In this document: positions 3,186 through 36,503 of the stretch, in pieces | How positions within the stretch are numbered: the stretch's first letter is position 1 | Layout: each line of letters starts with the position of its first letter | Source: Hypomyces perniciosus | Taxonomy: Eukaryota; Ascomycota; Sordariomycetes; Hypocreales; Hypocreaceae | Assembly (NCBI GenBank): GCA_008477525.1 | Contig: SPDT01000002.1 | Coordinates: 1,178,001 to 1,242,000, forward strand | Reading direction: 5' to 3' | Length of the DNA: 64,000 bases | Notes under the pieces: model-generated | Told to the model about the DNA's origin: nothing | Database searches by the model: none | What the model saw: the letters and a program-made list of their open reading frames with translations, nothing else | Made by a program: the position numbers and the translations under genes

Positions 3186-3235
3186 AACACTAACTAAAAG
3201 GACTTCGCCTTTTAGTTGGGCCCAAAATCTCTGAG
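3186..3235. mobile_element. Element E, left half (small inverted-repeat element)
   Basis: This is the left end of a small inverted-repeat (MITE-like) element whose other half is 33 kb away at 36291-36503. The visible motif AACTAAAAGG-ACTTCG-CCTTTTAGTT is a hairpin by itself and recurs, inverted, at the far end of the right half. When element D and one CTGAG duplication are removed, the left arm reads on into 36296 and matches the reverse complement of about 36430-36503 over roughly 75 bases. It has little RIP damage compared with its surroundings. No target-site duplication of E itself was found. Confidence 0.75.
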
Positions 3236-3643
3236 TGTTATGACCCGACTATATCGAAGACCAGGTCACAGGGGCATAGGAGAATATTAGTTACACCGAC
3301 CAATCATCAAAAAGTAATTACCGCGCTAAAAATAATTACTTAAACGCTTACTACACTAAAAAGTATAATTATTTATTTAATTACTATACTATTGCAGTAA
3401 TTGCAGTAATATTTACTAAAAGATTAGTAATTATATATAAATTTCCTTCATATAAATATAACTAGCTTATTATTTATTTAATAAAGTTATTTAAATAATT
3501 ATTAATAAATTACATTTACTAAAACTGCTTATTTTATAGAATTATAATTATATTACCCTATTTAATATTTATATTTAACCTCTTTATTAATATAAACCTA
3601 TAAACTTTAGTTTATCCCTTAAAAATTAGCCTAAATTATTATA
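3236..3643 (+). repeat. 5' LTR of element D
   Basis: It begins TGTTATGACCCGAC and aligns over its whole length with 35881-36290. Differences are mostly C/T and G/A transitions, as RIP produces. The terminal CA seen in the right copy is TA here. Confidence 0.9.
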
Positions 3644-6600
3644 TATTAACAACTTTTATTTAAAAGGCCACTAAAAATCTTAAATAATATTGTAAATATA
3701 TCCGCTATAGTATCCTCTTCTAATAACCCTAATACTCTACCTTTTATTCCACCTCCTCGCTAAAGGCAAAATAATAATAAAGATAATAATATAAGTAAAA
3801 GTAAAGATAAAGATAAAGTTAATAAAATAGAATAACTATATATTTATATAGAAAAAGCCTTTTAATATATAAAAGCTAATTATATAAAATAAAAGAAATA
3901 CTATTAATATTTAATTACTAAAAACGCTAAGCTTAATTAAATAATTTACTAACAGTAAATAACTATTATAGACTTATAGAATTAAACGCTGCCTATATTT
4001 AACCTAAACCTTATATTAAACTATAAAGGGAATTAACCTTTAAAGGACTTAAAGGAGTTATTTAAAATATAACCCTTTAAGCACTTTAATAAAAGCACTA
4101 TAGCGCTTTAACTATTTCTGATTTAACTATATAATTATTTTACCTATTTCTTAACCAGCCTTAATATAAAAATTAATAAAGTCCTTTTAGCTGCTAAATA
4201 ACTTAAAGGGAATACCTTAAAGTAATTTAAATTTATTTAAAGGGATTTCTTTAATAATAAAAGTAAAGCTAATAAATAGATATAGCTTATATTCGCTAGC
4301 TATAATTAATTTAAAGAAAAACTAAAAAATATTTTTAATAATATTAATAAAAAATATACTATAAAAAATAAACTTATAAATTTCGTTTTAAAAAAAAGAT
4401 ACTTTAGCTATACTATATACTTTAAAAACTATACTTTTAAAGTTAAATAAAGAAACTCTGCTTTTATGAAATATTTTTATAATAAACTTAAACTGGAAAT
4501 TAAAAAGGAAGCTTATAAATTTTCCTGCAATAAAGGCATTATTAAATTTATTAAAAAATATATAAATATAGATAATTTACTTTATAAACTTTATTTAAAT
4601 ATAAAAAAAGGATAACAGTAATCCAGATAAGTTTATAGGTATTAAAGATATATAAACTAAAGTAAAAAGCAATAAAAATATATCGCTAACTTTAATAATA
4701 AAAGACTTAGTTAAATAGATTTAGACGCTATTTAAAAGGGAAAAGTAAAAGTTATCTATTATAACTATAATAAACTAAAATACTTTTTAAAAGACTGTAA
4801 AGCTTTATAAAAGCTAAGAATTAATAAACCTTAAAAGCTTGCGCTAGAACCTAGATAAAAGGTTAATATAGTTTCGAAAACTATTAATTATATATTATTT
4901 AACTAGACTATATATTATAATAATAACTGCTTTACTTATAAATCTAGTAAAAATAGAAGCGGATAATACCTAAAATAACCTAAAAAGATATTTATAATAA
5001 ACTAAAAGGGATACTAGTTAAGACTTAAATCTTTAACTTTTAAAGGTATTTTTAAAAAAGATAAAGTAAATAAATATTTACTATACTTAAACAGTTTAAT
5101 AGAATAAAACCTAGACTTTAATTATATAGAGATAAATAAAGATAATAGTATCTTAAATAAATAAATAATCGCTATAATTAATTATTAATATTTTACTTAA
5201 ATTACTGCAGGTAATAAAAAACTAACTAGCAGCAGTAACTTTAATAATAAAAATAAAAATAACCCTTTAGAATATAAACTATTACTATATAATACTATAC
5301 TTTTAAAATTAGAAAATATATTACCTATAAACAGTAACCTTAAAGGTAAACTAAATAAATATTACTTAAACTTAATTAAAAAAGTTACTATAAGTATATA
5401 ATAAAATAAAATAAACCTACGCTTATATAGATAGCTCTCTATATAAAACAGAGCTAATAATAAAATAGCTGTTAAAGCTATTCTAGCTACTTTAACTATA
5501 TAAGCAGAGCTTATATATTTCTATATATAAAGAGACTATACTGCAAATAACCCTACTTATAAAAAATACTATACTATATCCTAGGTTATTTATATTATAT
5601 ATAAATATATAGTATACGTTTAAAAGAAAGTAAAATATAATACAGTTTTAATTAAAATTTTATTTTACCCTTTAAAATAAGTATAGGATTATAATGCTTT
5701 TAAAGAATAAATTATAACTATATAATATTAAAACTTTAAAATTATTATTATTAAACTAAATACTAAAACCTTAAAGGAATATTATTAATTATAAAGACTT
5801 AAAGGATATAAGTTTAAAAAATACTATATTTACCGCTAAAAGAAATTAATAAAGTAGTATTTTTACTATAATAAAAGGTTTAAATACAATTAATAATGCT
5901 ACTTAAAGTGCAATAGCCTAAAATATATTATATATAAGCGAAATAAATTATCAAATAAATATTTAAAATAAGCCAATAATACTTTATATTTATTGCTAGA
6001 CTATATATATTATTCAAAAAATATATATATTACCTACCTACAGGAAAAACTTTAAAAATTGTAAATATAAAAGTATATAAAGTATAAACCTACTTTAAAA
6101 GATAAAGAGATTGACTAGATTATAAAGGAACTGCATTAAACTTAGTTTAACTTTATTACCTATAAAGGAACTGCCTATAATAAGAGAAGGTAGCATTTAC
6201 TTTAAGAAACCTTAATTAACTATAAAATTTATATAAAAAGGGAAAAATTAAAAAATAATTAATATTATTTATAAAAGGGCTATAGGGTAATAATTAATAA
6301 ATAATATCTTTTAAAATATTAAATAATAAAAGTAATAATAAAGATTTACTATATTTTGAATTAAAAATAATAGTTAAAGGATATTAGCTATATATATTAA
6401 TAGATAGTAGAGTAATAAGCAATTTTATTGCATTTATAACTGTAAATTATTTACGGTTACCTTAAAAAAAGAAAACTAAACTATATTAACTTTATTAAAT
6501 AGAAAGAGGAGCTTTTATATATAATAATAAATAAATTAAGCAAAAAACTAATTATCTTAAATTTAAAATCATTAAATGCAAAAGAGTAGTTCTTGACAAT

Positions 6601-9600
6601 ATAGTAAATATTAATAAATATAATATTATTCTCGGTTATTTTTAATTAAAATACAATAACCCTAATATTAACTAGGAGAAAGGCTAGCTGTATTAGCGTA
6701 ATAGTAAAGCTCCCTTAGCGATTAAAACTATTAAAAAGGCTTTAACTGTAAGGCAGAAATCCTATATAAAACCCTTAAATATATTAAAGAAAGGAATTAA
6801 AAAAGTTACTTTTAATTTAATTACAGAAATAATCTACCTAAAAATAAAACTTAAATAAAGTAAAAGAAAAAATAAATAAATCTAAAAAATAATTACCTTT
6901 TTATAAAAAACATTTAATAATATTAATAAAATACTTAAAATAAAAAGCCTTAAAAACAGTATTATTACTAAAATAACTGCAGAATATCTTTAAAGAATAC
7001 TAAAAGTATAATAAACTATTTAAAAAAGCACTTAATATAAAACTACAAGAATATAGTTAATAAAACTATATAATTAAGCTTAAAAATAATATAAGTATTA
7101 CTTTCTATAAGATTTATAATCTAAACAAAAAAAAGCTTAAAAGCTTATATAACTATTTAGATAATATACTAGCTAAAAGGTATATCTAACCCTCTTTATT
7201 AAAAGTAGGCTACCCTATTATATTTATATTAAAAAAAGGAGGCAAACTATAGTTAATTATAAATTACCAATAGCTTAATAAAGCTACTATTAAAGACACA
7301 ACTCTACTTCTATTAATTATAGAATTATAAAATAAACTATATAAAAAAAAGTAATTTATAGCGCTAAACCTTAAAGGTACTTATAACCTTATTTAAATTA
7401 AAGAAGGATATAAATAAATAACCGCCTTTTAAACTAAATATAATTTATATAAATACCTAGTTATATATTTCAGTCTCATTAACGCCCTTATGATATTTTA
7501 AAAAATAATTAATAATATATTAAAAGAGGACCTTAACATTTTTTATAGTTATTTACGTAAATAATATCCTAATCTTCTCAGATACCTTTAAAAAATATAA
7601 GTATATATCCATAAAATATTATAAATACTATAAAATACTAAACTATTTATAGAACTAGAAAAATATAAATTCTATATATAGAAAGTTACTTTTTTAAAAT
7701 ATATTATTACCTTTAAAGAAATTTATATAAATCTATTAAAAGTATAAGCAGTAAAAAACTAGCCTATACCTATAACAGTTAAAGAAGTCTAAAACTTTTT
7801 AAAATTTACTAACTACTATTAATAATTTATTAAAAACTATAAAAGTATTGCATAAACTCTCTATAAATTTACTAAAAAGGATTAAAAGTTTCTATAAGCA
7901 TTAAATATATAGGATATATTTAATAAACTTAAATAGTTTATCTTAGAAAAACCTATACTTATTATATTTAACCTATCTAAAAAAATAAAAGTTAAAATAA
8001 ATACTTTTAACTTTACTATAAAAGCTTAATTTAATTAAAAAGATAAAAATAATAAACTATACCCTATTACCTTTTACTTTAAAGAATTATATAGCGCAGA
8101 ATTAAACTACTTAATATATAATAAAGAATTCCTTACTATTATTCTTATATTTAAAAAATAATAACACTACCTATTAAAAAGAATATATAAAGTTAAAGTA
8201 TACATTAACTATAAAAATATTATATATTTCGCAACAGTTTAATAACTTTTTAAAAGATAGATTTATTATATAGAATACCTTTTAAAGTTTAACTATATCC
8301 TAATACACCAGAAAAGATCTAAAAATAAATAAGCAAATATATTTAATAAATAAGCTAATTATAACCAGGGAAAGATTAAGTATACTAAGCAGATTTTAAA
8401 ATAAACCCTTAAAGGATATTACTAATAAATAATACTTGAAGCTATATATAAAGTATCTAGTAATAATACTATACTTTAATGCATTAAAGAGTACTATATT
8501 ACCTAAAATAATAATAAATTCCTAAAAGATATAAAGTTTAATAAAAAACAAATTTAACAATAAAATAAAAAAATCTAAATTTTAAATAAACTCTAGAAAA
8601 ATATAATTATAAAAGTTTATTAATACCTAATATACAAATATAAAAGTATTTATAAAATTTATAAATAAATATAAAGGTACTTTAAGTTTTAAAGGCTTAA
8701 GAAAGTAATATAATACATTATTTCTCGCTATATAACTTATAAAATGGTTAAACCTTTAAAACATAAACTATATAGTAAACTCTAACCCTTACCAGTACTA
8801 AAATAACTATAAAAGTCAATCTTATTAAACTTTATTATGAAACTATTATTATCTATTAAACTAAAAATAAAAATTAAATATAATAGTATTTTAATAATTA
8901 TAGATTAATATATTAAATACTTTTACTTCTTTCTATATAAAAAAGCAATAAATATAAAAACACTAGCTTATATATTTTACAATTTATTACAGTTAACTAT
9001 ATAATTCCAGTTAAAATTATTTCTAACTAAAGATTAACCTTCATATCTAAATTCTAGGAAATATTTATAAATCAATTAAATATAAATTATAAGCTTAATA
9101 CTATATACCACTTATAGATAAATAGTTAAATAGAATATATTAACCAGATTATTAAAGCCTATCTAAAAAGTTATATTAACTTTAACTAAAACAATTAAGT
9201 AAAGAAGCTATTAATTACATAAATATTTTATAATAGCGACATTTTAAAGTTAACTAGACTTAGCCTTATATACACTAACTATAGCTTTATACTAGATATA
9301 TATAAAGCGCTAAAGAAAGGCCTATATATCGATAAAGCATAAATTAAAGTTAAAGATATAAAGCAGTTATATAAAAAAATATAAATATACCTTTACTTTA
9401 TATAAAAAAAAACAAAAAAGTATACTAATAAATATAAATTAAAGTGATTAATTTTTAAAGAGAGAGATATAGTTTACCTATACTGTTATTCACTAAAAGA
9501 AAAAGACTATAAACATTAAAATAATACAACTAAATAATAAATTAAATTTTAAAAACTTAAACCTTACCTAGTTAAAAAGGTTATTTTAGAAATTATTTAT

Positions 9601-9900
9601 AAACTTATACTATTAAACAATATCCAGATCTACCTAGCATTTTATATTTTACTATTTAAAAAAGCATTATAAAATAAATTAAAAAATAAACTAATTATAA
9701 ATTTAATTAAAGTATTACTAGTTAAAAAGAATATAAAGTTAAAGAAATTCAAGCTATAAAAATAAAAGGCAATAAATACTAGTATTTAATAAAGTAAAAA
9801 AACTATAAAAAGGAGTATAACTTTTAGGAACTTAAAGAATACTTTAAGCACTCTTAAACAACTCTATAATAATTCCACTAAAATCTAAGCCTTTTAATAA
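3644..9900 (+). pseudogene. Element D gag-pol remnant
   Basis: Conceptual translation, reading through stops, gives a gypsy gag-pol. A zinc knuckle lies at about 4750-4803 (C-x-Y-x4-K-x4-DC, one Cys lost). The protease active site is near 6400 (LIDS, with Gly mutated). Reverse transcriptase is at about 7130-7720 (GYPIIFILKKGGK, IALNLKGTYNLIRI-like, then the broken catalytic box). RNase H is at about 7990-8340 (ELNYLIYNKEFLTII, then INYKNIIYF). Integrase is at about 8400-9500. A chromodomain-like tail is at about 9740-9870. Dozens of TAA/TAG stops fall where Gln or Trp is expected. No function remains; identification of RT and RNase H is firm, that of gag and the chromodomain is weaker. Confidence 0.85.
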
Positions 9901-10313
9901 AAGGTTTAATAAAGCGTTAAAAGTAAAAGAATCAATACCTTAAAAGTCCTAAACCTCTAAAAGAACTTCCAATTCCTACTGCTCTAGATTTTCTAGTTTA
10001 TCTAAAGATTCTAACCTATATTTAACTATCTCTTTACCTTTAGTCTATAGCTATTATTTCTAATAATAAAAACGCTTTAAATAATCTAAAGCCTTATCGA
10101 TTTCCGCCTAGGCCTTGCAAAGGGCTTTATAATAAAGCAATAAAAGTTCTTCTGCCAATTCTTTAACAAAATCAAAATATCGCAACTTAAAAACAATACT
10201 TAATACTAGGAAACAGTTTTGACTATAATACTAAAAGAAAAGCTTTAGGGAAATATATAAAAGCTTAATATAACCCCTGCACTATTATATAGATAACTAA
10301 TATAAATGCACTT
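9901..10313. other. Element D 3' untranslated part, left of C
   Basis: AT-rich sequence between the chromodomain-like tail of D and the insertion point of C. No open frame and no repeat boundary other than the putative target duplication GCACTT at 10308-10313. Confidence 0.5.
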
Positions 10314-10715
10314 TATTAGGGGTAACTAATATACCTAACGCACCAGTATTTTTCTTATTAACTTACCCGAGAAAGGTTAGCTGTTTATTTAAACAGCTAC
10401 TGGATTAAGAAAGCGCAGGAGTATAAAGATATATAGATAGACTTAGTTTAATAAACAGTAACCTTCTTCCCCTTTTAATATATAACCTTACCTATAAGAA
10501 TATAGCCGCTAAGGTATATAAAGGTAACTATTAGTTGCTTTTAGCTGCTAGCATTATAATTAAATAATCTGCAGTATCTTTTAATTTTTATATTATTTAA
10601 TTGCTGCTTTGTAGTTCTATTAAAAGCGCGGTTCCTGCGCTCGATATTAGTCATTATATATAGGTGCATATATATTATATATATATTTTAAAGCACTAAT
10701 TCCCCTTTAATAAAA
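10314..10715 (+). repeat. 5' LTR of element C
   Basis: Aligns with about 35227-35627 end to end. Shared blocks include ATATATAGATAGA near 10430, AACAGTAACCTT near 10453 and TGTAGTTCT/TATAGTTCT. Differences are nearly all transitions. The right copy is the better preserved, with CGCGGTTCCCGCGC and TGTGTGTTGTGTGTG still visible. Confidence 0.8.
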
Positions 10716-13700
10716 CTAGTAATTGAGATAGGGGGAAATTTTAGGGATTATATTTTAATAAGTAATTACTAAAGGCACTTTTATACTGCTATTAAGACCT
10801 ACCTTTACCTAACTATTGATAAAATTATAGGCTAGCTTTACCCAGTTTCTGTATAAATATAAAATGATTAGCTAAGGGAAATAGCTTAAAACCCTTTCTA
10901 TAACTATTTAATATAGATTAATATAATATTTAACTCTGAAAATGCAGGTTATTTAGTTATAATTTCTAAAAAGATATTAGAATTAGTTAACCTAGGCATA
11001 ATGCATTAAAATATAATAAAAAAGCAGAACTTTAAAAAGCTACTAGTTAATAATAACTGCTAATTAAAAGCTAAGATTTTAGGAAAAATTACTAAAAGAC
11101 CAGTTACCATAGTAAAAGTAAATATATAAGTAAAATAGTTAGTATTATATAACTTAAGCCCTTTTAAACTATTAATATATTATTATAACCTTTATTTTAT
11201 TTATTAGCAGGTAAATTAATTGGTAGAATAGCTATAAAGGGCTAATAAAGGATATATTAATTATTTAATCTTTTAGTATAGAGACTTTATTTTAATTTTG
11301 CTGATATTTTTAGCTAGGTTTTTTTAACTTTAAATAAAAGTATTATTTTTACTGCTTTTACAATCTTTAGTATATAAGCTGTCTTTACTTATATTAAAAA
11401 TATTTAAAGAAGATATAAAAAGGATAATAACTTAATATCTTGCAACTAGTATTAATATAGGAAACTATTCTTAAAAGACTAGCTAACTTCTTTATCTTAA
11501 ATAAATAAACGCAACCTTTTTTTTTATAAAAGAACTCTTTATATTAGCAGAATATATCGCTATAGCTTTATTATTAAAAGAATATATCCCTTTTTTAACT
11601 AAAAGAGGAATACTCTTTTAAAGGCTAGTTATTTAAGTTAAATAATTTTAATCTATAGGAAAAAAGGCATTCTTTTACTAAAAAACTATTTAATTAAGAC
11701 TTTAATAATTTACTTTAACTTAAAGTAAAAAAGTCTAAATTAAACTAATAACCTCTTTTTATTAAAATACTAAATATAACTTTATCTTTAACCCTTTAAC
11801 CTAAAGAATTATTTAATTATACACTTAACTTAATATTAACAATATCTACATCTATTATAATAAAATTTAAAGAAAGGTTAAGCTTTTTAATAAAAAAAGG
11901 GAAATTACTGTTTTAAAAGTTCCTCTTTTTGACTTAAGCCTTTAAAATATTTAAAGTATAAAGCTATTAATAAATATTAACCTTATAAGTAAATTTAATA
12001 GTAAAAATATATCCTAATTTTTAAAAAAACTATAAATACAAAATAAAAGATTAAGGAATCTTAATTAAAGATTAAAGGAGGTACCTAGAATTATTTATAA
12101 AAGTAAAAGAATAAAAGATAGTTTAGATTTTTATTAAAGAAAATATTAACTAGGATAAAATAAAGAAAAAACTTTTGCAATACTATAAGCAATAAGATAA
12201 AGATTAATTAGAATTGTATATAGTATAACTTTAAAACCTTTATTGCTATAAACTTATAGGAATATAGTCTATAATAAATTAATTGCTTTAATATTAATAT
12301 TTTTATTAAAAGTTTAATAAAAGAAATTAAAAGATAGTAATACTATATTCCTATAATATCGTGAAAGTAATACTATTAAACCTACTTTAGCTAATAATAG
12401 CTTTTAAAGGGATTAAAGAAATTAATAATTTTAAGGATTTAGTATATATTAAGGAATAAATACTTTGCTATAATAGAATATTAATAAAGTTTAATATTTA
12501 AAAAGCGTATTTTTAAAAGTTTAATAAAAGACTATTTAAAATTAGGGATTTATTAAATTTATTTAAGTTAAAGTTAAGCTTAAAGATAAAAAAGTAAAAA
12601 AAAGAATAGCCTAAACCTGTAAAGCTAACTATAACTTTGCAGCTTAAAGATTAAATAAATGCTTTATCTGAAAAATTTAATAAACTAGTAATTTAACTGT
12701 TTTAATAAAAGGAAAAGGCAATTAATCTAAGAGAAAGAGAATATTATTATATTACTACTAGTAGCAATAAACCTAAATAAAGACCTTTTACTTTAATAAT
12801 CGCTATTAATAATATTAATATAATAGACCCTTTATATAATAATATATTAAATACCTTTTTTATTCATTATTTAAAGGCAGTTATTAATATTAAATACTAC
12901 TAGTATTATAAAGATAAAGACTATTTTCCCTGGAACTACGCTAAGTTAGCCTATAATAAAGGCTATAGGTTTATAATATATAACCTAACAGTAAGAATAG
13001 CTTAGGTAAGCCTGCGGAAACCCCTAATCCTGCCTTAATTTATTATATTAATTATAACTGTTAAGACTTATATATAAAAAATGCTAGTATTTTAAGTAAA
13101 ATTGTTTAGAGTTTAAAATAAAGATTCCTTAAGTTTATTATTTATAAAAGATAAAACCTAGCTTTTTTAATTAAAAATTAACTATTTATAAAGCTAAACT
13201 CTTTAGTATTATTTATAATAAAATAGTATATAGGGAGATGTTCAAAGTTTAAATACTGTAAAGGTTAAATATAATTCCTGTAAAAGGATTAATAATAAAT
13301 ATTATATACTTTACAGGCAAAGATTAAATAATTGCTAATAAAAGGGATAATATATAAGTAAAAAGGGTTAAAAGTTTTTCTATAAACCTAACTAAAATAG
13401 CCTCTTTAAAGAAACCTTTAGATAAATATAATTAAGCCAGTTTAATTAAAGAATTATTTAATTAAACTTTTTTTATTAACTTTATAATTAGCAGGGGATA
13501 AAAGTATATTTATATAATTAATAAAGTGGATAAGTAAATTAAAAAGGAGCTATTACTGCTTTAAATAGAAAAACTAATCGAGAAAAGGAATGGCATTAGA
13601 CCTTATATTTATAGCCTTAAAGCCTATACTTTTAGGACTGCAGCGCAATAAAGAAAATAAAATTAAAGGGATTAATAATAAAAAAGAACTATTAAGGGTA

Positions 13701-16700
13701 AAGTAAGTTAAACTAATAATTTAAGCAGTAATTTTAGATTATATAATTAAGCTTAAAACTAATACTTTTTTAAATGCTATTTTAAAGTTTATAAATATTT
13801 TAAAAATAGATTTAATTGTAAAATTATAAAAAATTACTAAAATGCAGTTTTATAAAAAAATTAACTTAACTATCTTTAAATCTGCCTTATAGTAAATAAC
13901 CTTTATCTTTATATATAAATACCCTTTTAAAAAAACTATGAAAAAGATTAAATATAATAGCTATATATATAAAACCGATTATATAAGTTATTTAGTTATT
14001 ATAAAACTAACCTTTTAAAGCTATAACTTTATAACCTTTATTAATAAAGGGATTATTAAATAAAGAGTTATTTAATTGTAAAGACTTAAACCTATTAATA
14101 CTTTTAGAAATATACTTTTATAAATTAAAGCAATTAAATATAGCCGTTAACTATAAAGTAAATTAGTTATAGAAGTCTATAACCTGGATTTATATAGTTT
14201 AAATAGGAAACATCCTTTACTATTTATAGGATTTACTGTAAATATAAATATATTTAAAAGAGTTTAATAGTATATTTATTAACGTATTTATAGATTTAAG
14301 GTTAAAGGGAAATATTATCTTTTATTAACTAGCTATAAAATATAATATAATAATATACTTTTATAAAGTAGTTAATACTGCATTTAATAATAGGCAAATA
14401 AATATTTATAGCGAAACTGTTATTTAAGTATATATAGGTAATGCCTAAATAGCAGCTAGATTTTATATTATACTTAATAACGTTTTAATACCTTTTATTC
14501 TCGGGATATTATTTATTTAAGCTATGCAGTTAATATTTAATTATATATTAAAGAATAAGGATTTGTATATAAAATATAAAATAGGGAATATTTAAGTTAT
14601 TACGTTAACTGTTAAAGCTATCTATTAAAAATATAAAATAAAGGCATTATATAATTTAAGGCTAAAATAAATATTAACTTTATATTTAAGTATAAAGTTA
14701 ATAAAGTGGAAGAAAGCTTAGAAAACCTTTACTTTACTTTTAGGGAAAAGGTTTTATATAGATTATTAAAGCGAGCTAAGGAGGATTTAATTTAGCTGCT
14801 ATTAGCTAATAAGTTAAAAGATTAAATAAAAATAATAAAGAAAATAGTAAAAGGAATTTAAAAAAATAAAGGAATAAGAAAAAAGGTTTTTAAAAAAAGT
14901 ATAGAAGTGTAAGCGGATTAAAATTAATATTATATATAAAAAGAAGGGTATAAAAATCTATCTAGTAAATAATGTTTTGTTTAATAGTTTTATTCTTATT
15001 AGGAGTCTTTATTAAAAATAAAAAATGTAGGATAAAGTTAAAGATAATTTAAACTTTAATACCCTTTTCGCTAAATATATTACTTTAAAGTTCTTATTAA
15101 TTAAAGCCGGGTTAAGACTTATATTAGACTATTTAGCCGCAATTTAAAAAACAATAAAAGGGAAATTAATAGAATAAAAACCGCGATCTTAATATAAATC
15201 TTAAAAAATAGGGAAATAGCATTTTCCTAGGACTTTATAAAATATAGAAAGCTAGACTTTAAAATTGCCCTATTATAAACTATTCGTGTAGTAGAGTATA
15301 ATGCTTAGTAGAGCGGCAGTATCTTGATCTTTAAAGGTATAGAGAAGAAAGTAGTTAACTTATTATAAGTATATATTAAGAAAAGTCTTTTAAAGGAAGG
15401 CTATAAGCTATATAGGAACTTGTTTTTTTTAATATAGAAAAAAGATAGCGGCTTTTACTTTATTAATTCTATTACATAGATAAATAAAGTAATTATTAAG
15501 GATGCCTTTATTTTATTAAGTATAGATTAATTTAGCGAAGACCTTGCGGGTTATATAATACTATTATTATTAAACTTTTTCTTAGGCTATAATTAAATCC
15601 CTTTTAATAAGAAAAGTTAAGATATAATTATATTTATAAGCTTTATTGGCCTTTTAAAATACTATACTCTCCTAATAGGCGCTATAAACTTAATAGTGTA
15701 ATTCTAATATATTATTCTTTAAATACTATTTAATCTTATATTTACAGTTTATTAACTATTTTTAAATAATATTATAGTTTAAGATTTAAAGTTTATATAT
15801 AATGGTAAAGAAGTAATATTTAACGTTTAATATTATATTTTAAAGTATCTTTAAAATTTAGATAAAACCTTTATTAATATTAAACTATTAAGATATTTAA
15901 TCTTGGCAGTAAAATTAGTCTTTTATTTAAAATCTATTAAGTTAATAGGGTATTTATATAGAATAAAAATGCATTAATTAGCTATAGGTAAAATTATTAA
16001 AATTAAAGAATAAAAGAACTGTAAGACTATTAATAAAGTTTAATCTTTTTTTAGTTTAATTAGCTACTATAAATGCTAGATTAAACATTTTACGTAAATT
16101 ACTGAGCCTTTAATAACTTTATTAAAAAAAACGCCCTTTAAAGGTAAATTAAAGAATAATAGTAAGCTATAGATAAACTTAAAGAGCTTATCACTTCTGC
16201 CATAATACTAGTAAGATTAAATATAAATAAAGGATATAAGGAAGTAATTTTTATAGTTAATACTAGTATAGTAGGCTAAAGGGGTGTTTTAATATAGATT
16301 ATAAAAGGGAAAAGATAATTAATTTAATATAAAAGTAAATACTAGCTTTTATTAGAAATAAAATATAATACTATAAAAAAGGAATATAAAGCTTTACTTT
16401 AAGCCTTTAAAAGGCTATATATTTATATCTATAGACTTTTATTTATATGAAAAATAGATATTAAAGTAGTTATTAATTAAATAAATAGTAGAATTAATAA
16501 TATTTTTAGTAGATATATAACTTAATAGATTAATTATATCTTTCTTTTTAACTTTACTATTAAATATATCCCTAGGAAAGAAAATATTATAGCGGACATT
16601 TTATTTTAAAAGCCAGTAACTATTATAAATAAAGCTAAAGCTAAAAAAAAAGGACTTAAAAGATTTTATAGATATATATTTGAATACGATTTCGTTTATA

Positions 16701-24504: not shown

Positions 24505-24766
24505 TATTAGAGACCCTTTTTAAGGCAGATAGATTAGGCAAGGGGCTGCGACTTTAAGGAAAAGTAAAGGAGGTTAAAGAGTAGTTATTTGGAGGAGAAA
24601 TAGGTGCAAATAAACAGGTAATAAGCCAGAAACTAGTAGTTAGGTGTAGCAGCAGTAGTTTACTGGTCTCTGAAGTTCTATATCTTCAGGGACTATAGTT
24701 GCTCTTATATATGCATTCCGGCCTATATAATATCACGAGAGCTCCAGAGCTTCCGGTCTCTTAACA
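24505..24766 (-). repeat. 5' LTR of element B
   Basis: Direct repeat partner of 17007-17268. It begins TATTAGAGACCC (the TG of the partner has become TA) and ends TCTTAACA, preserving the terminal CA that the partner lost. The pair therefore shows RIP acting independently on each copy. Confidence 0.92.
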
Positions 24767-24771
24767 ATAGA

Positions 24772-25940: not shown

Positions 25941-27914
25941 AGCTAAGAATTAAGGTATATACTTATAAGTTAAAGGAAGAAAAGATATTTTAATTAAAAT
26001 ATAATCTTTTATAATACTTTAAGGTAACTATTCCTAGAATAAACTAGATAAATTAAGACAATTACCTTTATATAAAAGATATATAGGCAAAGATAAGCGG
26101 CAATGTTTTTAAAAATAACTGCTAGGTATTATTTTTAAAGGGCAAAAGATAGCTATTAATTAAAGTTTATTGCTTTACTTATAAAAAAGTATAATTTAAG
26201 TATACTATAAAGAAAAAAGCTGCGAGATTAAATAATTTATTAATTATATTTCTTTATTAACTATTTACTTTTTAATAGCAGAAATTAAACTAAACTTTTC
26301 AACCTACTAAATTGCCTAACTTTCTGCCTTTTATTTCTTTTAAAATAGGGAAAGTCCTTTATAAAATAAAGGGCTATTAAGGGATTAAAATAGCTGGAGA
26401 CTATTAGCCTAATAAAAGTAAATATTTAATTTTTTTTAAGGAAAGTAATAGCTATATTTTGGTTACTTTATTAAAGCTAGTAATTAAAAAGATATTGCTA
26501 AATATAAAAAAAGGCCTTAAACTAAAGGCAATTTAAATAGTTCTTTTATTAGAAATTTAGGATAAAGATATAGGTATAAACAGGAAATAAGATATATTCT
26601 TTAGCAGCTGTAATAGTAATAGATTAAGTTTAAAGGCACCTTTAGCAGAACTAAGGATTATACTGTCTATAGAATAATATAAATAAAGCTTTAATATACT
26701 TTATCTACTTAAAAAGAGTATAAAAGAACTACCTATAAATATATAAAAATTTTGCTGGGATATAGATAGGCTTAAAGAGCTTTCCTTTAATAGTGTATAT
26801 AATATTTTAAAAGTATAACTAAAAGCCTTTAAAAGTATAGCGCTAAAAGTATTCTTTAAAGGTATAACCTTTTATAAATAATAAAAGAAATAAAGATAGT
26901 ATAAAGGAAGGGGAGAAAGTAATCTTTAAATAGATTAGTAAGTTTACCTGACTAATATTAATACTGCCTATAATTTAAATAGTAAAATACTTTTAAATTT
27001 AGATAAAGTTAGAATAAAGACGCTAATTAAATAATACTTATTTATTAAAGCTTTATTTAAAGTAAATAGCTAAGTAAAGAAATATAGCTAGGTTTAACTT
27101 TTTTAAGATAAAGAAATCTCGCTAAAGGTTTTTTCCTTTATAATAGGTATATCTATAAAGTTAGCTATATTAGGCAATTAATAATAGGCTTTTTTAATAA
27201 GATTTTTTATAATTAAATAATAATTAAAAAAAGATTAAAAGGAAAAGAAAAAAGGGAAAGAGAAAGGAAAATAAAAGTAAATAAGTTATAGAGGCTACTT
27301 TAAAGGAGTAGTAATTTATATATAATAAAGAAACTACTTTATATACTAAACTATATACCTGCACCTATAAAAAGATAAATATAATATTATACTTTACCTC
27401 TTTTTTTCTTTTTCTTTATTTAAATATAATCTTATCTCACTATAACTAAAATATTGCCTTTACTTTAAATCTTATTCTAGAATTATTTAATTATATTTTT
27501 TTTCTTTTTCTACTATAATACTTTATTTAAAAAAAAACCTTTACCCTTTTACTTTATTTTTCTAGTTTATAAAAGATAGGCTAAAAACTTTACTTTTTTA
27601 TTATATTAGCTAAATATCCTTAAACTGCACTAGGAACCTTTTTAAGTTAAATAAATAAAACTTTACTGTTAGTTTTATTATAAATTAATATAGCTATTAA
27701 CTATTATAAATCTACCTTTAATTTAATTAATATATTATTAACTATTTATGATTACTTTAAGCTATATTTACTATAAGAATTTTATGCTAATATTTGACTT
27801 TAAGGTAAATAAATAATGCTTTTATATTAAAAATATCTATAACTTTTTATATAACTTTTCCTATAAAAGATAGGCGTTAAACTTTACTTTAAAGGCAATA
27901 CTTTATATAGTAAT
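25941..27914 (+). pseudogene. Element C, unidentified coding-like stretch downstream of integrase
   Basis: Read on the + strand through stops at Gln-type positions, 25950-27300 has the look of a decayed coding region (long runs without frame change, for example around 26290-26700), but no known domain was recognised. It lies after the integrase and before the copia insertion. It could be an extra open reading frame of C, a remnant of another insertion, or untranslated leader. The rest up to 27914 is featureless AT-rich DNA. Confidence 0.35.
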
Positions 27915-28494
27915 TATTAAAAAGGAGGGCTAAAAAGCAAGGATTTCTGTGTAATTAGGTAACCTTCCTATTCTGGCTAGACCCGGAATTAGGCCCGACG
28001 CTAGGACCGAGTTCCGGAGGAACTTCGGTGTAAGTCAGGAAATTTCTGTTATCCTTAACGATAACAATTAAGCTAGGATCGGCTACCCCGCCTACCCTAG
28101 ACTCAATACAATGGGCATAATGGCCATTGTGAAAAATCTGACCAAAATGGTTTCCCGTTTATATGGCTGTGAGTCGATTTGACCGATTTTATATACAAAT
28201 GAATTTTGCGGAAAATAAGAATGCGGCCATAAACCCAATTCTGCCACCGCACACCTATTATTAGGTCGGAGGACTATTATAGAAGACAAAGCTATTGTTT
28301 ATACAATCACTTCTACACCAGCCGCACATCACTAGATATTCTATAGCTTTCTAGCTATTAGTTTAGTTACGATTCAATTGTTTATCTATTGTTAACCCAA
28401 CTAGACTCTCAGTCATTTCCTTATTGCTGCGTTGTGTGCAGCTTCCTAAAAGCTACATATAAATGAGGTTCAGTATAACCTTGTTATTTTAATA
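27915..28494 (+). repeat. 5' LTR of element A
   Basis: Direct repeat of 33918-34497. In the first 215 bases that I compared, about ten differences occur and all are A/G or C/T transitions, so RIP rather than ordinary divergence explains them. A 65-codon open stretch on the minus strand occurs in both LTRs and is not a gene. Confidence 0.93.
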
Positions 28495-28529
28495 GGTTAT
28501 AAGCCCGGGAGAGTTTTCCTTGGGTCTCT

Positions 28530-31500
28530 ATTAGTGGATTTTTCTAGTGGTTACAGCACTTCCCTTAGCGCTACTATAGCACTTATAGCGGGTTTTTACA
28601 GTGCTTATCCTAATATTTATAGCACTTCCCCTAGCGCTACTACAGCACTTATAGCGGGTTTTTATAGTGCTTATCCTAGTGCTTATATCAGCATTCTTGG
28701 ATTTTGGCTACCAGAAGCTATTCCTAGGCTTTTACTGCAAATACTGTTACAGTTATAGTAGTACTGCTACTATTTTCACTATTTTTAGTGATTTATATAT
28801 ACTATATAGTATATTCCCTATTTTAATAGGATATAGGTCTGATAGCAGTATAAGTCAACCTATCAGGGCTCCTAGTAGCCTTATTTCCTTAATTAATGAT
28901 AATAGCTCTCCCTAGCAGCAAAGGTATCTATTTATTCAAGTGCAGAATATAAAACAAGAGCTTCAGGCACAGAAGGCTTTTACTAAAACAGTCAAGGCAC
29001 AGTTAAAGGGTCAGAATAACACTATAACTCAGTTATCTAATACTCTAACTAGCCTAGCTGCTGCTATATTAGGGCTTTAATAACAGGCTACTAGTCCAAT
29101 ACAAGTTGATCCTATAGCCTTTATTTTAGTGCCGATATAAGCTCTTACTCCTATTCCTATACCAATCCAGGTTCCATTTTCATCTATTCCTTAACCCCAG
29201 AATACTATTTCTACTCTAAATAATAGTTTTATTAAAGAGGTATTAAAAAAGGTCTATAGCTTTCCAGAAAGTTATAAGCTAGTAGGTCCTGATAATTTTA
29301 ATTAATAGAAACAGTCCCTAAATATTATACTAAAGGCTATAGATTACTATACTTTTATAGAAAATCCTATAATTGCCGATTCCCTATCTAACTTAGAATA
29401 GGCCCTATTACTTATACTAATTAGGGATAGTTTAACAGCTATTCCTGCTGTATCTATTACTTGGATTCAAAGCCTAAAAGAAGCATTTTTGGCATTAAAG
29501 AGATAATATAGTTATTTTAATACTCTGTAAAGAGACTCCCTTTATAGGGAATTTCATTTATTAAATTACAGTAATTATAAAGGATCTTTAACTGAATTTA
29601 ATACTACTTTTAATAGCTTATTAGCTAAGCTAGCGATTTTAAAGGTTAATATTAATATACTAGACCAAGTAAATCAATATTTAAATTCCCTAGAAAAGAC
29701 TTTTCCTTAATAGGCTAAGAGAATTAAAGGAACTATTAGATCTAGTAAAGCTATTAGGCAATCTACTAAAGGTTTTAATATTCAGTTCCTTATAGCAGAT
29801 ATATTAGAAAAGACTAGGAATCTATCTTTTACTGCATATAAAGTTAACAAGGCCTTAGGCCCTTTTAAGTCCCTTAAAGATCAAAGGCCAGCTTCTAATT
29901 CCAATAAAAGGAAAGGAAATTAAAAGAATCAAGGAAATTACAAGAATCAGAAAAACCAGAAGCAAACTACAGAGGATACTGCTTTTGCTAGTATATATCA
30001 TCTAGCTATTAGGGAGTATAGCGCAAAAGAGCTATCAGAAGAGTCTTTTACTAAATCTATTAGTAGTTCAGATAGTAATCGAGATCTTCTATATACCCTA
30101 AACGCTAAAAAAGGCAAAAAGCCTTTTAAGCCTTTTAAATCTTCTAAAAAACCTAAATCCCTTAAACTTCCTATTCAGGATAGTCTATTATATAATACTG
30201 GATCTATAGTTTATATAATTAACTCTAAGAAATAGTTTATAGACTATAGATTTAATAAAAAGGACCTAGGTATTATCTATACTGGCGGGGGCCTTGTTAC
30301 CTTTAAGGGAATAGGTATAGCTACTTTTAATATCTTTAATAAAGATAATAACTATGAAGAGATAAAATTGCTAAATACCCTTTATTGCCTACAGCTAGAT
30401 ATAAACCTTATAAGTGGTTTAAGGCATTATTAAGCTAAAGGATATATACAGTATAATACTCTTTTTACAAAAACTATACAGCCAATAAAGCTATTAAATC
30501 CCTTAAAATATAGTTTTTTCCTTACAATTAAAGGATATACTATACCATACAGCTATATAAATAGCTATAAAGCTTATAGTTTTATATAGGTTTAAATTCC
30601 TGCTATTAGTAAAGAAAAGGCTTAGGAATATATTGCTATTCTAGAAGCAACAGCTTCGAAAAAACAACCAACTAGATCTAGTCCTAGGCTTATAAAGAAG
30701 AATAATCCTAAGGGAAAGGATCTCTTTAAACTCCCTGAAACCCTAGGCCAAGTAGAGGAAAAGGGGCCTTGTATACCCCTATTGCCTAAGGAAATAGAGG
30801 GGAATAAGCCTATAGAGGATACCTTTATAGAGGAAAGGCCCTATATGCCTAGGGAATCCTCTATTACTGAAAATCTAGAAGTTATTAAGCTATCTAAACT
30901 AAAGGGAGATACTATTATTAATAGTAATTTTAGCCATAAACTGCTAAAGCTAGCCCTTTTATAGTATAAAAGACTAGGTTATATTAACTTAAGTCTATTA
31001 AAGAAAACTGCTAAAATAACTATTAGAATTCCTAACTTTAATTCTATTAAAGAGACTGAATTCCACTGCCTTGCATATAATAAGGGAAAAGCTATTAGGA
31101 GGCTTTATTTAAAGCTAATTCCTGATCCACTAGCCTCTCTAAATTATTTAAAAGCTAATACTTTCTCTATAAAGCCAGTGCTTTATAATAAGGCCCCTAT
31201 TAATCTTGTAATTATCGATAGAAAATTAAAATATAGGCGGCTATTCCTTTTAAGAGATTAAAGTGGACCTACCCTTCTAGCTACTATATAAGGCTTTATA
31301 AATAGCCTAAAAACGCAGTATAACCAGTATCCTAAGGAATTCCATTATAATAGTGGAAAGGAAATTAATTAGGAACTTTAGACCTGGTTCTTTTCTTTAA
31401 GAATTACATTTTCCTATAGCAGCCTTTATATTTACAAACAGAATAGTTTAATAGAACGCTCTATTAAGGTTTTATTAGATAGGCTTCAGGCTATTATTAT

Positions 31501-33740
31501 AGCGGCTAACTTGCTACTATATCTCTAGAATTTTATTATAACTGCAGTTCTTAAATTAATTAACTATATAGCTATTACTAATAGGGACTCTACCCTTTAT
31601 TAAGAATTATATAAAGACCTAGACTTTAATAAGGATTATAAGCTTAATCTGCGAAGATATAGGATTATTGGCTTTTATTATAAGGTATTTATCCCGCAAA
31701 AATAAAGGGCTAAAGGCTATAAATTAGCCCTTAAGACTGAAACTAAGAGACTGCTAGCAGTTATAGGTAATAATACTTATCTTATCTATATTCCAATTAG
31801 ATATACAGTCTTTAAATCGTTAATTATAAAGCTATATAAAGATAAGATTCTTAAGCTTTAAATCCTAGAGCCTACTATAGGTTAAGATAATAAGGAATTA
31901 AAGGGAGAAATAGAGCTAGATTTATTAGATCAAATAATTCCTAGCTTTCAGGATATTAATCCCTTACTCCCTGACCCTATTCTAAAGGGAGTACCTACTA
32001 CTATTCCCCCTATTCCTATACTAGTTATACAAGACTCTACTGTTATAGAGGATCCAATGGATATAGATATATCCTACTTTCTCTATAATAGTATTAGAAA
32101 GCTAGCCTTTCCAGCTACTGCAGCACAAGACCCTTAAACGCTCAAGCAAGTACTTTATAGTCCTGATAAAACTAAATAGCTAACAGCAATTTATAGCGAA
32201 TTTAACCAGCTAGTCGAACAATACACCTTTACTTTTATTAAGTGTAATAGTATTCCTAAAGGCAGGAATCTTATTACTAGTCGATTAGTATTAAAGACTA
32301 AAAAAGACCAGAATAATAAAATAGTTAAATTTAAAGCTAGGCTAGTTGCTAGGGGCTTCCAACAACTAGAAGGAATAGATTTCAACTAAACATTCGCCTT
32401 AATAGCTGTTCCTTCTACCTGGCGGTTTCTATTAGCCCTAGCCATTATCTATAACTAAGAAATCGAATAAATTAACTTTATTAATATATTCCTTAACAGG
32501 ATACTTAAAGAAACTATCTTCCTTAACTTCCCTAAACGATTTAAAGACTATACCAGTCAAGCTTCCTTTAAGATTAAGTCTACTCTTAGAAAGCTGGGTT
32601 ATAACCCTAATATAGATTAGGTTATTCGGTTACAGAAAACTCTTTATAGCCTAAAACAGTCCCCCAGAGAATAGCAACAGGCTTTATAAGCCTTAGGAAA
32701 TAAACTAGGATATAATCCTTTAATTTCTGACTCTACTATTCTCTATAATCCAAATAACGGTATTTTTATTATTACTTATATAGATAACTGTCTTCTTATT
32801 AGACTAGATAAAGAAGCTATAGCCCAGCTAAAGCTAGCTTTTAATAAAGTTTATACTATAGAAGATAAAGGCCCTGCCTTTTTCTTTTTAGGGGTTTAGA
32901 TAGTCAGGGATAGAAAAAGAGGCCTTTTTTAGCTTTCCTAGAAACAGTATATTACTGAAGCTATAGAGTTTTTTAACTTTCAAAACTCTAAGCCTATTTA
33001 ATTACCCCTGCAGCCCTTTATTTTAGCTAATAAGACTATAACTAAACTAGATAAAGCTAATATTAAGCTTTTTCAAGCTATTATTGGTACTATTATCTAC
33101 TTAACAATTTATACTTAAATAGATACCAGCTTTCTAGTCTAGTAGCTAGCTAGACAATTTTAAGGCCTTTATAAAAAGTATTTAAATGCAGCCCGTAACC
33201 TATTACAGTATTTAAATAATACCTAGGATCTAGCTATTCAATATATTAAAAAATCTAGTCCTATACCTATTGGTTATTGCGATAGTAATTTTACTGGGGA
33301 TAAAGAATTAAGCAAATCGACTTATAGCTATATTATTATAGTTACTAATAGGCCAATTAGCTGGAAATCAAAAAGGGGCTTAACTATCTATCTTTCTACG
33401 CTAGAAGCAGAGTTTATAGCTCTTATAAAAGCTACCAGGGAGATTCAGTGGCTTATTGGCCTATATAAAGAGGTAGATCGACCAATTAGACAGCTAATCT
33501 CTCTACTTAACGACAATAAAGGTGCTATTTCTACCTCAAATAACCCTACCCTTTATAATTGAATAAAATATACTCTATTGCAGTTTAATTATATTAAGGA
33601 ACAGGTTAAAAATAGCGTTATTATAGTCAGCTATCTGGAAACCAGTAAAATAGTTGCTGACAGGCTTACTAAGCCTCTTCCAGGTCTAAAATTAAAGAAT
33701 TTTATAAATCTCCTTAATCTCAAAATTTTACCTAAAGTAT
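28530..33740 (+). pseudogene. Element A gag-pol remnant
   Basis: The frame, read through stops, runs as follows. Gag lies at about 28530-30100. A protease site, LLYNTGS, is at about 30187. A GAG-pre-integrase block (YKRLGYINLSLLKK) is near 30967. The integrase core is at about 31200-31900. Reverse transcriptase is at about 32190-33000, with ARLVARGFQQLEGIDF and YIDNCLLI in place of the usual YVDD box. Copia RNase H is at about 33260-33720, with WKSKRGLTIYLSTLEAEFIAL and the terminal ADRLTKPLPG. Stops interrupt it at many Gln positions, for example just after IDFN. The copia assignment is secure. Confidence 0.9.
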
Positions 33741-33917
33741 ATACTTAAAGTTCTTACCCTTCTTATAGCTATTAGCTATTTTTTAGCTATTAGCTATCTT
33801 TATTATTTTTAGCTATATTAGCTATCCTTTTTATTTTTTATATTCTAGTTACTTTCCTATATCTAGATCCTATATCTACTTTAAAGTTATATAGGATAGT
33901 ATCTATTCCAGAGGGAG

Positions 33918-34497
33918 TGTTAAAAAGGAGGGCTAAAAAGCAAGGATTTCTGTGTAATTGGGTAACCTTCCTATTCTGGCTAGACCCGGAATTAGGCCTG
34001 ACGCTAGGACCGAGTTCCAGAGGAACTTCAGTATAAGTCAGGAAATTTCTGTTATCCTCAACGATAACAATTGAGCTAGGATCGGCTACCCCGCCTACCC
34101 TAGACTCAATACAATAGGCATAATGGCCATTGTGAAAAATCTGACCAAAATGGTTTCCCGTTTATATAGCCGTGAGTCGATTTGACCGATTTTACATATA
34201 AATGAATTTTGCGGAAAATAGGAATACGGCCACAAACCCAATTCTGCCACCACACACCTATTATTAGGTCGGAGGACTATTATAAAAGACAAAGCTATTG
34301 TTTATACAATCACTTCTACACCAGCCGCATATCACTAGATATTCTATAGCTTTCTAGCTATTAGTTCAGTTACAATTCAATTGTTCATCTATTATTAACC
34401 CAACTAGACTCTCAGTCGTTTCCTCATTGCTGCGTTGTATGCAGCTTCCTAGAAGCTATACATAAATGAGGTTCAGTATAACCTTGTTATTTTAACA
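33918..34497 (+). repeat. 3' LTR of element A
   Basis: Starts TGTTAAAAAGGAGGGC directly after the polypurine tract and ends TTTTAACA. Partner of 27915-28494; same length. Confidence 0.93.
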
Positions 34498-34502
34498 ATA
34501 AT

Positions 34503-35226
34503 ACTATAATTTATAAGACCTTTATTAATTATATTAGCCATTGCTAATAATACTGAAACTTTAAATGTAGAGTTAGTTTCCTTTAATGAAAGTAATAGCT
34601 TTTTTAATATATTAAAGGACAATTAAGACTTAAAGGATAAAAGAGTTTTAAAAGTTACTATTAAATTTAACCGGCAAGCAATTAAAGATAATAAAAAGGC
34701 TTTTTTAAAACTAGGCGAAAGAGGGCAAGCTATAATAGTAGCCTTTATAGTAGTAATAAAGAAAACTGCACTTTAGTATTCCTAGGTCCAATAAATTATA
34801 GCTTTAGATATATATTATAGCTTAACTTTATTTAGGCTAATAGATAAATTGGCTTAAGATAATATTTAAGAATAAGTTTATGCATTTATATAAATAATAA
34901 AATAATTAATATAAAATAAATAGATAGTAGTTTAGAATACCTAGTAATAAAGAGATTAATAAAAAGGGATTATTTAATTATAATAATTTTAATAAAAAGG
35001 GAATAATTTAATATAGATTAGATAGGGAGGAATTAGTAATATAAATAGCAGTAGTTTTGCTTTTAATTTTCTTTCTTTTTTTCTTTTAATAATACTTTTT
35101 CCGCTATTTTTCTATATTGTTTACATTTTCCTTAAATATTATTATATTAATATTAAAGGGATTAATAAGAAAAGTGTTTTATTAAGATTTGCTACTTTTA
35201 TTTATAAATATTTATAAAAAGGGTTT
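34503..35226 (+). pseudogene. Element C, second unidentified coding-like stretch
   Basis: After the copia insertion, element C continues. From about 34505 to 34930 the + strand reads as a protein-like frame (blocks NTETLNVELVSFNES and LKLGERGQAIIVAFIVVI) interrupted only at Gln/Trp-type codons. I do not recognise it. It lies just before the right LTR of C, so it may be the end of an extra gene carried by C. The last 250 bases are non-coding and end in a purine-rich run before the LTR. Confidence 0.35.
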
Positions 35227-35627
35227 TATTAAAGGTAACTAATATATTTAATACACTAGTATTCTTTTTATTAATTTACTTAAAAAAGGTTGACTGTTTA
35301 TTTAAGCAGCTATTAAATTAAAAAAACATAAGAGTATAAAGATATATAGATAGATTTAGTTTAATAAACAGTAACCTTTTCCCTTTTTAATATATAACCT
35401 TACCTGTAAAAATATAGCTGTTAAGGCGTATAAAGGTAACTGTTAGTTGCTTTTAGCTGCTAGTATTATAATTAAATAATCTGCAGTATCTTTTAGTCCT
35501 TATATTATTTAATTGCTGCTTTATAGTTCTGTCAGGAGCGCGGTTCCCGCGCTTAATACTAGTCGTTATATGTGGGCGTATGTGTGTTGTGTGTGTATTT
35601 TAAAGCGCCAATTCCCCCTCGACAAAG
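35227..35627 (+). repeat. 3' LTR of element C
   Basis: Direct repeat partner of 10314-10715. It is less mutated than the left copy, with several CpG and TpG steps preserved near 35540-35600. Confidence 0.8.
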
Positions 35628-35880
35628 CACTTACTATATTTCAAAAAGCAATCGCTTATATAACACTTTAGGCCGCGAGAAAGATAATAAGAATAAAGTA
35701 TAATATTAAAGCTGTTAATATTAATTAAGTCTACAAGTTTATAATAATAAAAAGTTAATTTAATATAAATAGGCTATAAATTATTAAATATAATAAATAG
35801 TTAAGAAAAAGGATATTATATATAAAAAAAGGGAAGGGATTAAATAGGTTTTAAAGATAAAATTAATAAAAGGGGGATAT

Positions 35881-36290
35881 TGTATTACAACCCGACTATA
35901 TTAAAGACTAGGTTATAGGGGTATAGGAGAATATCGGTTATACTGACTAATTATTAAAAAGTAATTACTGCGCTAAAAGTAATCACTTAAACGCTTACTA
36001 TATTAAGAAGTATAATTACTTACTTAATCACTATACTATTACAGTAATCGCAGCAATATTTACTAAAAGATTAGTAATTATATATAGATTTCTTTTATAT
36101 ATATATGACTGGCTTGTTATTTATTTAGTAGAGTTATTTAAATAGTTGTTAATAAATTGCATTTACTAGAACCGCCTGTTCTACAGAATTGTGACTATAT
36201 TACCCTGCTTAGTATTTATCCTTAACCTCTCTGTTAACATAAACCCACGAACCTCGGGTTATCCCTTGAGAATCAGCCCGGATCGTCACA
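35881..36290 (+). repeat. 3' LTR of element D
   Basis: Partner of 3236-3643. It ends GATCGTCACA, followed directly by the duplicated CTGAG. Its last 100 bases are close to normal base composition, so RIP damage fades towards the edge of the island. Confidence 0.9.
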
Positions 36291-36503
36291 CTGAGCCACC
36301 TCAGTACCCGAGCCACTCATATAAAGTGGGTGGTCGGCTAATTACATTTTCGATTTTTGCGAACATTATCGATTTAGATTTTTGACCTACGCACTAACAA
36401 CTCCCTATAGGGAGCCCCATATAAACCTGTTCCTGGCCCGGGTATTGGGGTGGGTCAGAGATTTTAGGCCCAACTAAAAGGCGAAGTCCTTTTAGTTGGT
36501 GTT
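36291..36503. mobile_element. Element E, right half
   Basis: Continuation of 3186-3235. It starts at the duplicated CTGAG and ends at the terminal arm with the AACTAAAAGGCGAAGTCCTT hairpin. Joined to the left half, it makes a roughly 260-bp element with about 75-bp inverted arms and no coding capacity. It marks the right edge of the transposon island. Confidence 0.75.

What the first reader, a model, noticed from the sequence alone, without database searches (positions are those of the whole stretch)
3186..36503. Six-element nested transposon stack that can be read completely
Direct repeats and target duplications order the insertions: E split by D (CTGAG), D by C (GCACTT), C by B (ATAGA) and by A (GTAAT/ATAAT), and B by F (TATAAGTATA). 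Protein continuity agrees: the C integrase resumes right after B. Four nested levels in 33 kb, with intact duplications despite heavy mutation, gives a relative clock for each family.
Basis: seen in the sequence. Interest (0 to 1): 0.75.

Follow-up and report, generated by a model that had tools for sequence, protein, structure and literature searches.

The report
RIP-mutated nested transposon stack in fungus
Six mobile DNA elements lie nested inside one another in an AT-rich part of a fungal chromosome; the order of these six insertions can be checked against the genome and holds, but the outer edge and one junction are damaged and the order is not a clock for the element families.

Summary
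The nesting is real: E > D > C > {B, A} and B > F. Joined-flank queries found uninterrupted paralogues for four of five junctions (E/D 13 places, D/C 30, C/B 40, B/F 40). The fifth, A in C, failed (0 of 40 rows cross by more than 18 bases): four other C copies examined carry about 1.12 kb there that this copy lacks. A is a real insertion with a 5-bp duplication, but its site also suffered a deletion. Corrections: C's duplication is 4 bp (GCAC); E reaches 36525 on the right, but about 22 bp of its left end are missing and it has no readable duplication. So the stack cannot be read "completely". D and B are Ty3/gypsy, C gypsy-like, A Ty1/copia; E and F are short inverted-repeat elements. The "heavy mutation" is RIP-like: 190 transitions to 3 transversions between LTR pairs, so LTR divergence is not a time clock. 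Elsewhere the order is reversed: on contig C10 a D sits inside an A with duplication TATAG. The stack orders these copies, not the families. Similar nested clusters are described in fungi (PMC4522978, PMC6218096).

The parts
3186..3235 (+). E, left fragment of a short inverted-repeat element; outer ~22 bp of its terminal repeat missing; last 5 bases CTGAG are the D duplication
36296..36525 (+). E, right part with complete terminal inverted repeat ending ACGGG, followed by TA (36526-36527)
3231..3235 (.). D target duplication CTGAG, left copy
36291..36295 (.). D target duplication CTGAG, right copy
3236..3640 (+). D 5' LTR
3641..10311 (+). D internal, Ty3/gypsy; RVT_1 maps to about 7220-7710 from 9 other D copies (a tenth at 6995-7456)
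35631..35882 (+). D internal, right end
35883..36290 (+). D 3' LTR
10308..10311 (.). C target duplication GCAC, left copy
35627..35630 (.). C target duplication GCAC, right copy
10312..10714 (+). C 5' LTR (TTTGTC...GACAAA type)
10715..17006 (+). C internal, part 1; RNase H piece 16166-16618 (RT_RNaseH_2, E 2.6e-06, just below Pfam's cut-off), then an integrase-like frame up to B
24772..27914 (+). C internal, part 2, where the interrupted frame resumes
34503..35224 (+). C internal, part 3; about 1.12 kb between part 2 and part 3, present in four other C copies, are missing
35225..35626 (+). C 3' LTR
17002..17006 (.). B target duplication ATAGA, left copy
24767..24771 (.). B target duplication ATAGA, right copy
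17007..24766 (-). B, Ty3/gypsy on the - strand (LTRs 17007-17268 and 24505-24766; RVT_1 at about 21376-21854 by mapping from 8 other copies), interrupted by F
22432..22441 (.). F target duplication TATAAGTATA, left copy
22442..23058 (+). F, 617-bp element with ~83-bp terminal inverted repeats; 8 other copies match over 1-617 at 91-98%
23059..23068 (.). F target duplication TATAAGTATA, right copy
27910..27914 (.). A target duplication GTAAT, left copy
27915..34497 (+). A, Ty1/copia (LTRs 27915-28494 and 33918-34497; RVT_2 at 32249-33013 with 10 stops)
34498..34502 (.). A target duplication ATAAT (GTAAT in 13 of 14 other C copies read), right copy

Best explanation
This is one block of an AT-rich, transposon-filled compartment of a filamentous ascomycete (probably Sordariomycetes, Hypocreales-like) in which retrotransposons land in one another. 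Shown: D (gypsy) inserted into E, C (12-kb gypsy-like) into D, B (gypsy, opposite strand) into an integrase-like frame of C, A (copia) into the 3' part of C, and F (short inverted-repeat element) into B. Shown: the LTR pairs of the long elements differ almost only by C-to-T/G-to-A changes, as RIP makes them. Inferred: short E and F were mostly spared, as their GC suggests. Inferred: A entered C at the right-hand GTAAT, and the 1.1 kb to its left was later lost between short repeats (GTA(A/G)T at both ends), which leaves the pentamers on both sides of A. Inferred: E's left end was lost in a separate rearrangement. The order holds for these copies only.
For: Empty-site paralogues across the junctions: E/D 13 places covering query 7-205 or more at 81-95% identity, D/C 30 of 35 rows, C/B 40 of 41 rows, B/F 40 of 40 rows. 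C LTR3 lies 4955-5036 bp after the B site in 9 of the 11 C copies with an LTR3 at 3.9-5.1 kb, against 3,863 bp in the window without A (arithmetic). A's 5-bp duplication is seen at 4 of 5 single LTRs. C has 4-bp duplications GTAA, CTAG and TTAT in 3 of 5 other copies read at both ends. One D copy and two B copies compared piecewise show no insertion hidden in the window's D or B. LTR pairs: D 70 ts/3 tv of 405, C 66/0 of 400, B 24/0 of 262, A 30/0 of 580. RIP composite index 0.73-1.17 in A-D, -0.62 in the gene part. Frame continuity across B. Pfam: C RNase H in copy L133 E 2.3e-12, A RVT_2 110.9 bits, RVT_1 in B and D copies.
Against: The A/C joined flank has no contiguous match (0 of 40 rows), so A was not a plain insertion. 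E has no readable duplication and its left flank is not the expected one. No RT hit maps to 40 C sites (81 of 150 RVT_1 and 82 of 107 RVT_2 rows were mapped), and rve gave 26 hits, 19 of them in one intact family. Expected C, D and B ends were not found at every copy probed: C 5' LTR 3 of 4, C 3' LTR 3 of 4, D 5' LTR side 1 of 4, B left LTR 2 of 4. Two C copies read at both ends have no matching 4-bp duplication. The RIP index is weak evidence: an un-RIPed gypsy RT piece scores TpA/ApT 1.33 and substrate 0.71, close to A, and E scores 0.53; the case for RIP rests on the transitions and low GC. Reads were not examined.
Confidence: 0.9

Rival explanations
1. The A gap arose from two A insertions about 1.1 kb apart in C that recombined with each other, deleting the C segment between them, so the flanking pentamers are from two different insertions.
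For: Both A ends are complete up to their termini and the deletion is flush with A; single A LTRs with 5-bp duplications show that LTR recombination happens; the native left site is mostly GTAGT or ATAGT, the right GTAAT, i.e. not identical.
Against: It needs two insertions at near-identical pentamers; a random 4-of-5 match has probability 0.047. The window's left pentamer GTAAT equals the native right site without extra changes (though 2 of 14 native left sites also read GTAAT).
Confidence: 0.25
2. The nesting order dates the families: E oldest, then D, C, B, with A and F youngest.
For: In this stack LTR identity rises from D (0.82) and C (0.835) to B (0.908) and A (0.948).
Against: D sits inside A in 7 of 28 D loci and inside B in 2; on contig C10 an A whose left end abuts B interior contains a D with duplication TATAG; the LTR differences are nearly all RIP-type transitions.
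Confidence: 0.04
3. The stack is an assembly or recombination artefact joining unrelated LTRs.
For: None found; reads were not available.
Against: Matching duplications at D, C, B and F (A: 4 of 5 bases), paralogous empty sites at four of five junctions, internal parts collinear with other copies.
Confidence: 0.03

Closest known systems
Nested TE clusters with verified target duplications in Mycosphaerella graminicola (PMC4522978; abstract sentences and passages seen)
   Same: Stacks of LTR elements with RIP-like mutation, bounded by target duplications; 78 clusters of 7.5-63 kb, one of 47 kb with TGGAA and a drop in GC.
   Different: Other host and families; there the base elements of the table with verified duplications are LTR elements, here the outermost is a truncated short inverted-repeat element.
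Nested repeats in AT-rich blocks of Epichloe festucae (PMC6218096; passages seen)
   Same: AT-rich blocks made of repeats interrupted by other repeats, long ones RIP-inactivated, short MITEs only weakly affected.
   Different: Host not shown to be the same; families not compared.
crapaud LTR retrotransposon and RIP in Podospora anserina (PMC10787394; passages seen)
   Same: LTR retrotransposon family with heavily RIPped copies; notes that LTR dating relies on neutral evolution.
   Different: Different family; concerns LTR subfamily evolution, not one stack.

Membership tests
LTR retrotransposon, Ty3/gypsy (B, D) | LTR pair with short target duplication | tested here: met
LTR retrotransposon, Ty3/gypsy (B, D) | RVT_1-type reverse transcriptase | tested here: met
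   10 RVT_1 hits at 27 D sites (9 at one offset) and 8 at 40 B sites at one offset; hits are in other copies, none listed in the window's own B or D
Ty3/gypsy (B) | integrase downstream of reverse transcriptase | tested here: inconclusive
   an integrase-like frame at 19831-20073 (-) was read by eye; Pfam gave no hit to it; B was not mapped against the rve list
Ty3/gypsy (C) | RNase H then integrase on the same strand | tested here: inconclusive
   RNase H met in L133 (E 2.3e-12), below cut-off in the window; integrase-like frame read by eye and continuous across B but no Pfam hit to the zinc-finger piece
Ty3/gypsy (C) | LTR ends TG...CA (recalled as usual) | tested here: not met
   ends are TTTGTC...GACAAA with 4-bp duplication; hence 'gypsy-like'
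Ty1/copia (A) | RVT_2 reverse transcriptase between LTRs with 5-bp duplication | tested here: met
RIP | C-to-T transitions dominate in repeats, CpA favoured | tested here: met
   190 ts vs 3 tv in four LTR pairs; CpA is the commonest mutated context in D, B and A, tied with CpT in C
Tc1/mariner-type MITE (E) | terminal inverted repeats with TA duplication | tested here: inconclusive
   8 of 16 printed relatives show both CCCGTT.../...CGGG ends next to TA; the window copy lacks the left end; no transposase was sought
Mutator-like or other DNA transposon (F) | 9-11 bp duplication (recalled) | tested here: inconclusive
   10-bp duplication read in this copy only; no transposase was sought

The most novel reading that the evidence does not exclude
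RIP load of single insertions works as a rank clock for individual copies, independent of family, and RIP has stopped acting in this lineage: D copies lodged in A keep more GC (mean 0.234, n 7) than other D copies (0.163, n 15; p 0.005, a comparison chosen after seeing the loci), and an un-RIPed gypsy family has 19 places with open frames, 11 of 12 fetched RT pieces being identical DNA.
Probability: 0.3. Interest if true: 0.4.

Novelty: new member of a known kind. Interest (0 to 1): 0.22.

Why it matters
It is a clean worked example of how to test a nested stack: empty-site paralogues confirm four junctions and expose a deletion at the fifth that the duplication alone would hide. It also warns against reading LTR divergence or a single stack as a family clock where RIP acts.

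Tried and rejected
Six-base duplication for C (GCACTT): rejected, 3 of 5 other C copies read at both ends show 4 bp, and the LTR ends are TTTGTC...GACAAA; three more probed copies gave no 5' LTR (L121, L125, L129). C copies without the 1.1 kb as the ancestral form: 0 of 40 rows contiguous; the shorter C14 copy keeps the right-hand site, read by eye, so its loss lies elsewhere. Insertions hidden in the window's D or B: not found; the C7 D copy differs by an A LTR inserted in it plus about 70 bp, and the B copies by indels of 60, about 170 and about 420 bp. The view that C lacks reverse transcriptase functions, raised by no RT hit at 40 C sites: dropped after the RNase H hit. Pfam on ten short stop-free pieces gave nothing above cut-off. 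A promoter scan of 200 bases was of no use. tRNA and tandem repeat scans added nothing. One paper search returned a single paper, on grapevine.

Selections made: the lists typed hold 81 of 150 RVT_1 rows, 82 of 107 RVT_2 rows and 27 of the 30 spanning D sites. The E/D count leaves out two full-range matches at 69-70% identity and one partial match (query 1-88). The GC comparison used 22 of 28 D loci (six with shorter D pieces dropped). Reverse nesting was read from 28 D loci (L038-L058, L060, L062-L067) plus L002; of the 7 D-in-A loci, L060's junction was not printed and has 11 unmatched bases, and L042's D end reads 4 bases short. On C10 the right-hand A/B junction was not fetched.

Full report
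Setting. The window lies at G000:C5:1178001-1242000 of a 44.0-Mb genome in 23 contigs. Bases 1-36,000 are AT-rich (2-kb GC 17-34%), the rest is 41-56% GC with long open frames. The named ones among the 120 listed relatives of a cryptochrome DASH frame in the gene part are, as far as I recognise the genera, Sordariomycetes, the best ones hypocrealean, at no more than 58% identity, so the host is probably a Sordariomycete; I did not identify it.

Boundaries. Self-comparison gives LTR pairs for A, B, C and D and inverted repeats for E and F. Reading the ends gives D 3236-36290 with CTGAG, B 17007-24766 with ATAGA, A 27915-34497 with GTAAT/ATAAT, and F 22442-23058 with TATAAGTATA. Other C copies show LTR ends TTTGTC and GACAAA, with 4-bp duplications GTAA, CTAG and TTAT in three of five copies read at both ends; the other two showed none. 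C is therefore 10312-35626 with GCAC, not GCACTT.

Order. I joined short flanks at each junction, keeping one duplication, and searched the genome. Uninterrupted matches: E/D 13 places covering query 7-205 or more at 81-95% identity, out of 92 rows that are otherwise arm matches or partial (two full-range matches at 69-70% not counted); D/C 30 of 35 rows (two others are the window's own halves); C/B 40 of 41; B/F 40 of 40. Probing the expected ends of other copies found the C 5' LTR in 3 of 4 and the 3' LTR in 3 of 4, the D 3' LTR in 4 of 4 but D sequence at the 5' side in 1 of 4, and the B right LTR in 4 of 4 and left LTR in 2 of 4; several misses are places where another element lies. Piecewise comparison with one D and two B copies shows no insertion hidden in the window's D or B. 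C's frame before B continues after B as in uninterrupted copy L133.

The A site. The C/A join gave no contiguous match: none of 40 rows crosses the junction by more than 18 bases, and left and right flanks match separately. Four C copies have about 1.12 kb between them, and 9 of 11 C copies with a nearby LTR3 have the matching spacing. Native left sites read ATAGT (6), GTAGT (4), GTAAT (2), ATAAT (1) or ATACT (1) in 14 copies; native right sites read GTAAT in 13 of 14 and ATAAT in one. Single A LTRs elsewhere have 5-bp duplications in 4 of 5 copies. The simplest account is A entering the right-hand GTAAT, then loss of the 1.1 kb between short repeats; two recombined A insertions remain possible.

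The outer edge. Of 16 relatives of E printed, 10 begin TACCCGTT and 8 show both CCCGTT and CGGG ends next to TA. The window copy has this on the right (to 36525) and lacks about 22 bp on the left, where the flank is different. No duplication can be read for E.

What the elements are. A: RVT_2 at window 32249-33013, 110.9 bits with 10 stops, hence Ty1/copia. D and B: RVT_1 in 10 hits at 27 D sites (9 at one offset) and 8 hits at 40 B sites at one offset, B on the opposite strand. C: RNase H by Pfam in L133 (E 2.3e-12); in the window 2.6e-06 but just below the curated cut-off. The integrase reading of C rests on my reading of frames, not on a profile hit.

Mutation. LTR pairs differ by 70, 66, 24 and 30 transitions and 3, 0, 0 and 0 transversions in D, C, B and A. 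RIP composite indices are 0.73-1.17 in A-D, 0.53 in E, 0.23 in F and -0.62 in the gene part. The index alone is weak: an un-RIPed gypsy piece of this genome has TpA/ApT 1.33 and substrate index 0.71. LTR divergence here counts RIP-type changes, not time.

No family clock. In 28 D loci, D lies in A in 7 and in B in 2. On contig C10 both ends of one D are in A, with TATAG on both sides, and the left end of that A abuts B interior. In the window the order is D, then C, then A. The families were active over overlapping periods. D copies lodged in A keep more GC than other D copies (0.234 vs 0.163; 7 vs 15; p 0.005), which fits RIP load tracking single insertions, with wide scatter; the comparison was chosen after the loci were seen.

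Known context. Nested, RIP-affected clusters with verified duplications are described in Mycosphaerella graminicola (PMC4522978, passages) and nested AT-rich blocks in Epichloe (PMC6218096, passages). The finding is a good example of a known kind.

Noticed in passing
G000, e.g. C3:1077056-1077541 and 18 more places: A gypsy-type family with 19 places bearing open frames without stops (1254 aa in 18, 1147 in one); 11 of 12 fetched RT pieces are identical DNA, one differs by a single C/T. It shows almost no RIP differences, unlike the stack.
   Followed up: partly
window 2711-2857: A fragment related to F (71-82% identity) lies in the left flank outside E.
   Followed up: no
L004 1485-2083: In another B copy a single A LTR (duplication TATTT) sits a few bases from the position where F entered B in the window.
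   Followed up: no
window 3186-3234 and 36455-36503: E's terminal repeats contain an internal palindrome AACTAAAAGG...CCTTTTAGTT.
   Followed up: no
window 35883-36290 against 3236-3640: D's two LTRs are unequally mutated: 51 of 70 transitions carry A/T in the left LTR, 19 in the right.
   Followed up: no
L098: A C copy appears to be inserted in an A LTR (about 16 bases unmatched between them), another possible reverse nesting.
   Followed up: no
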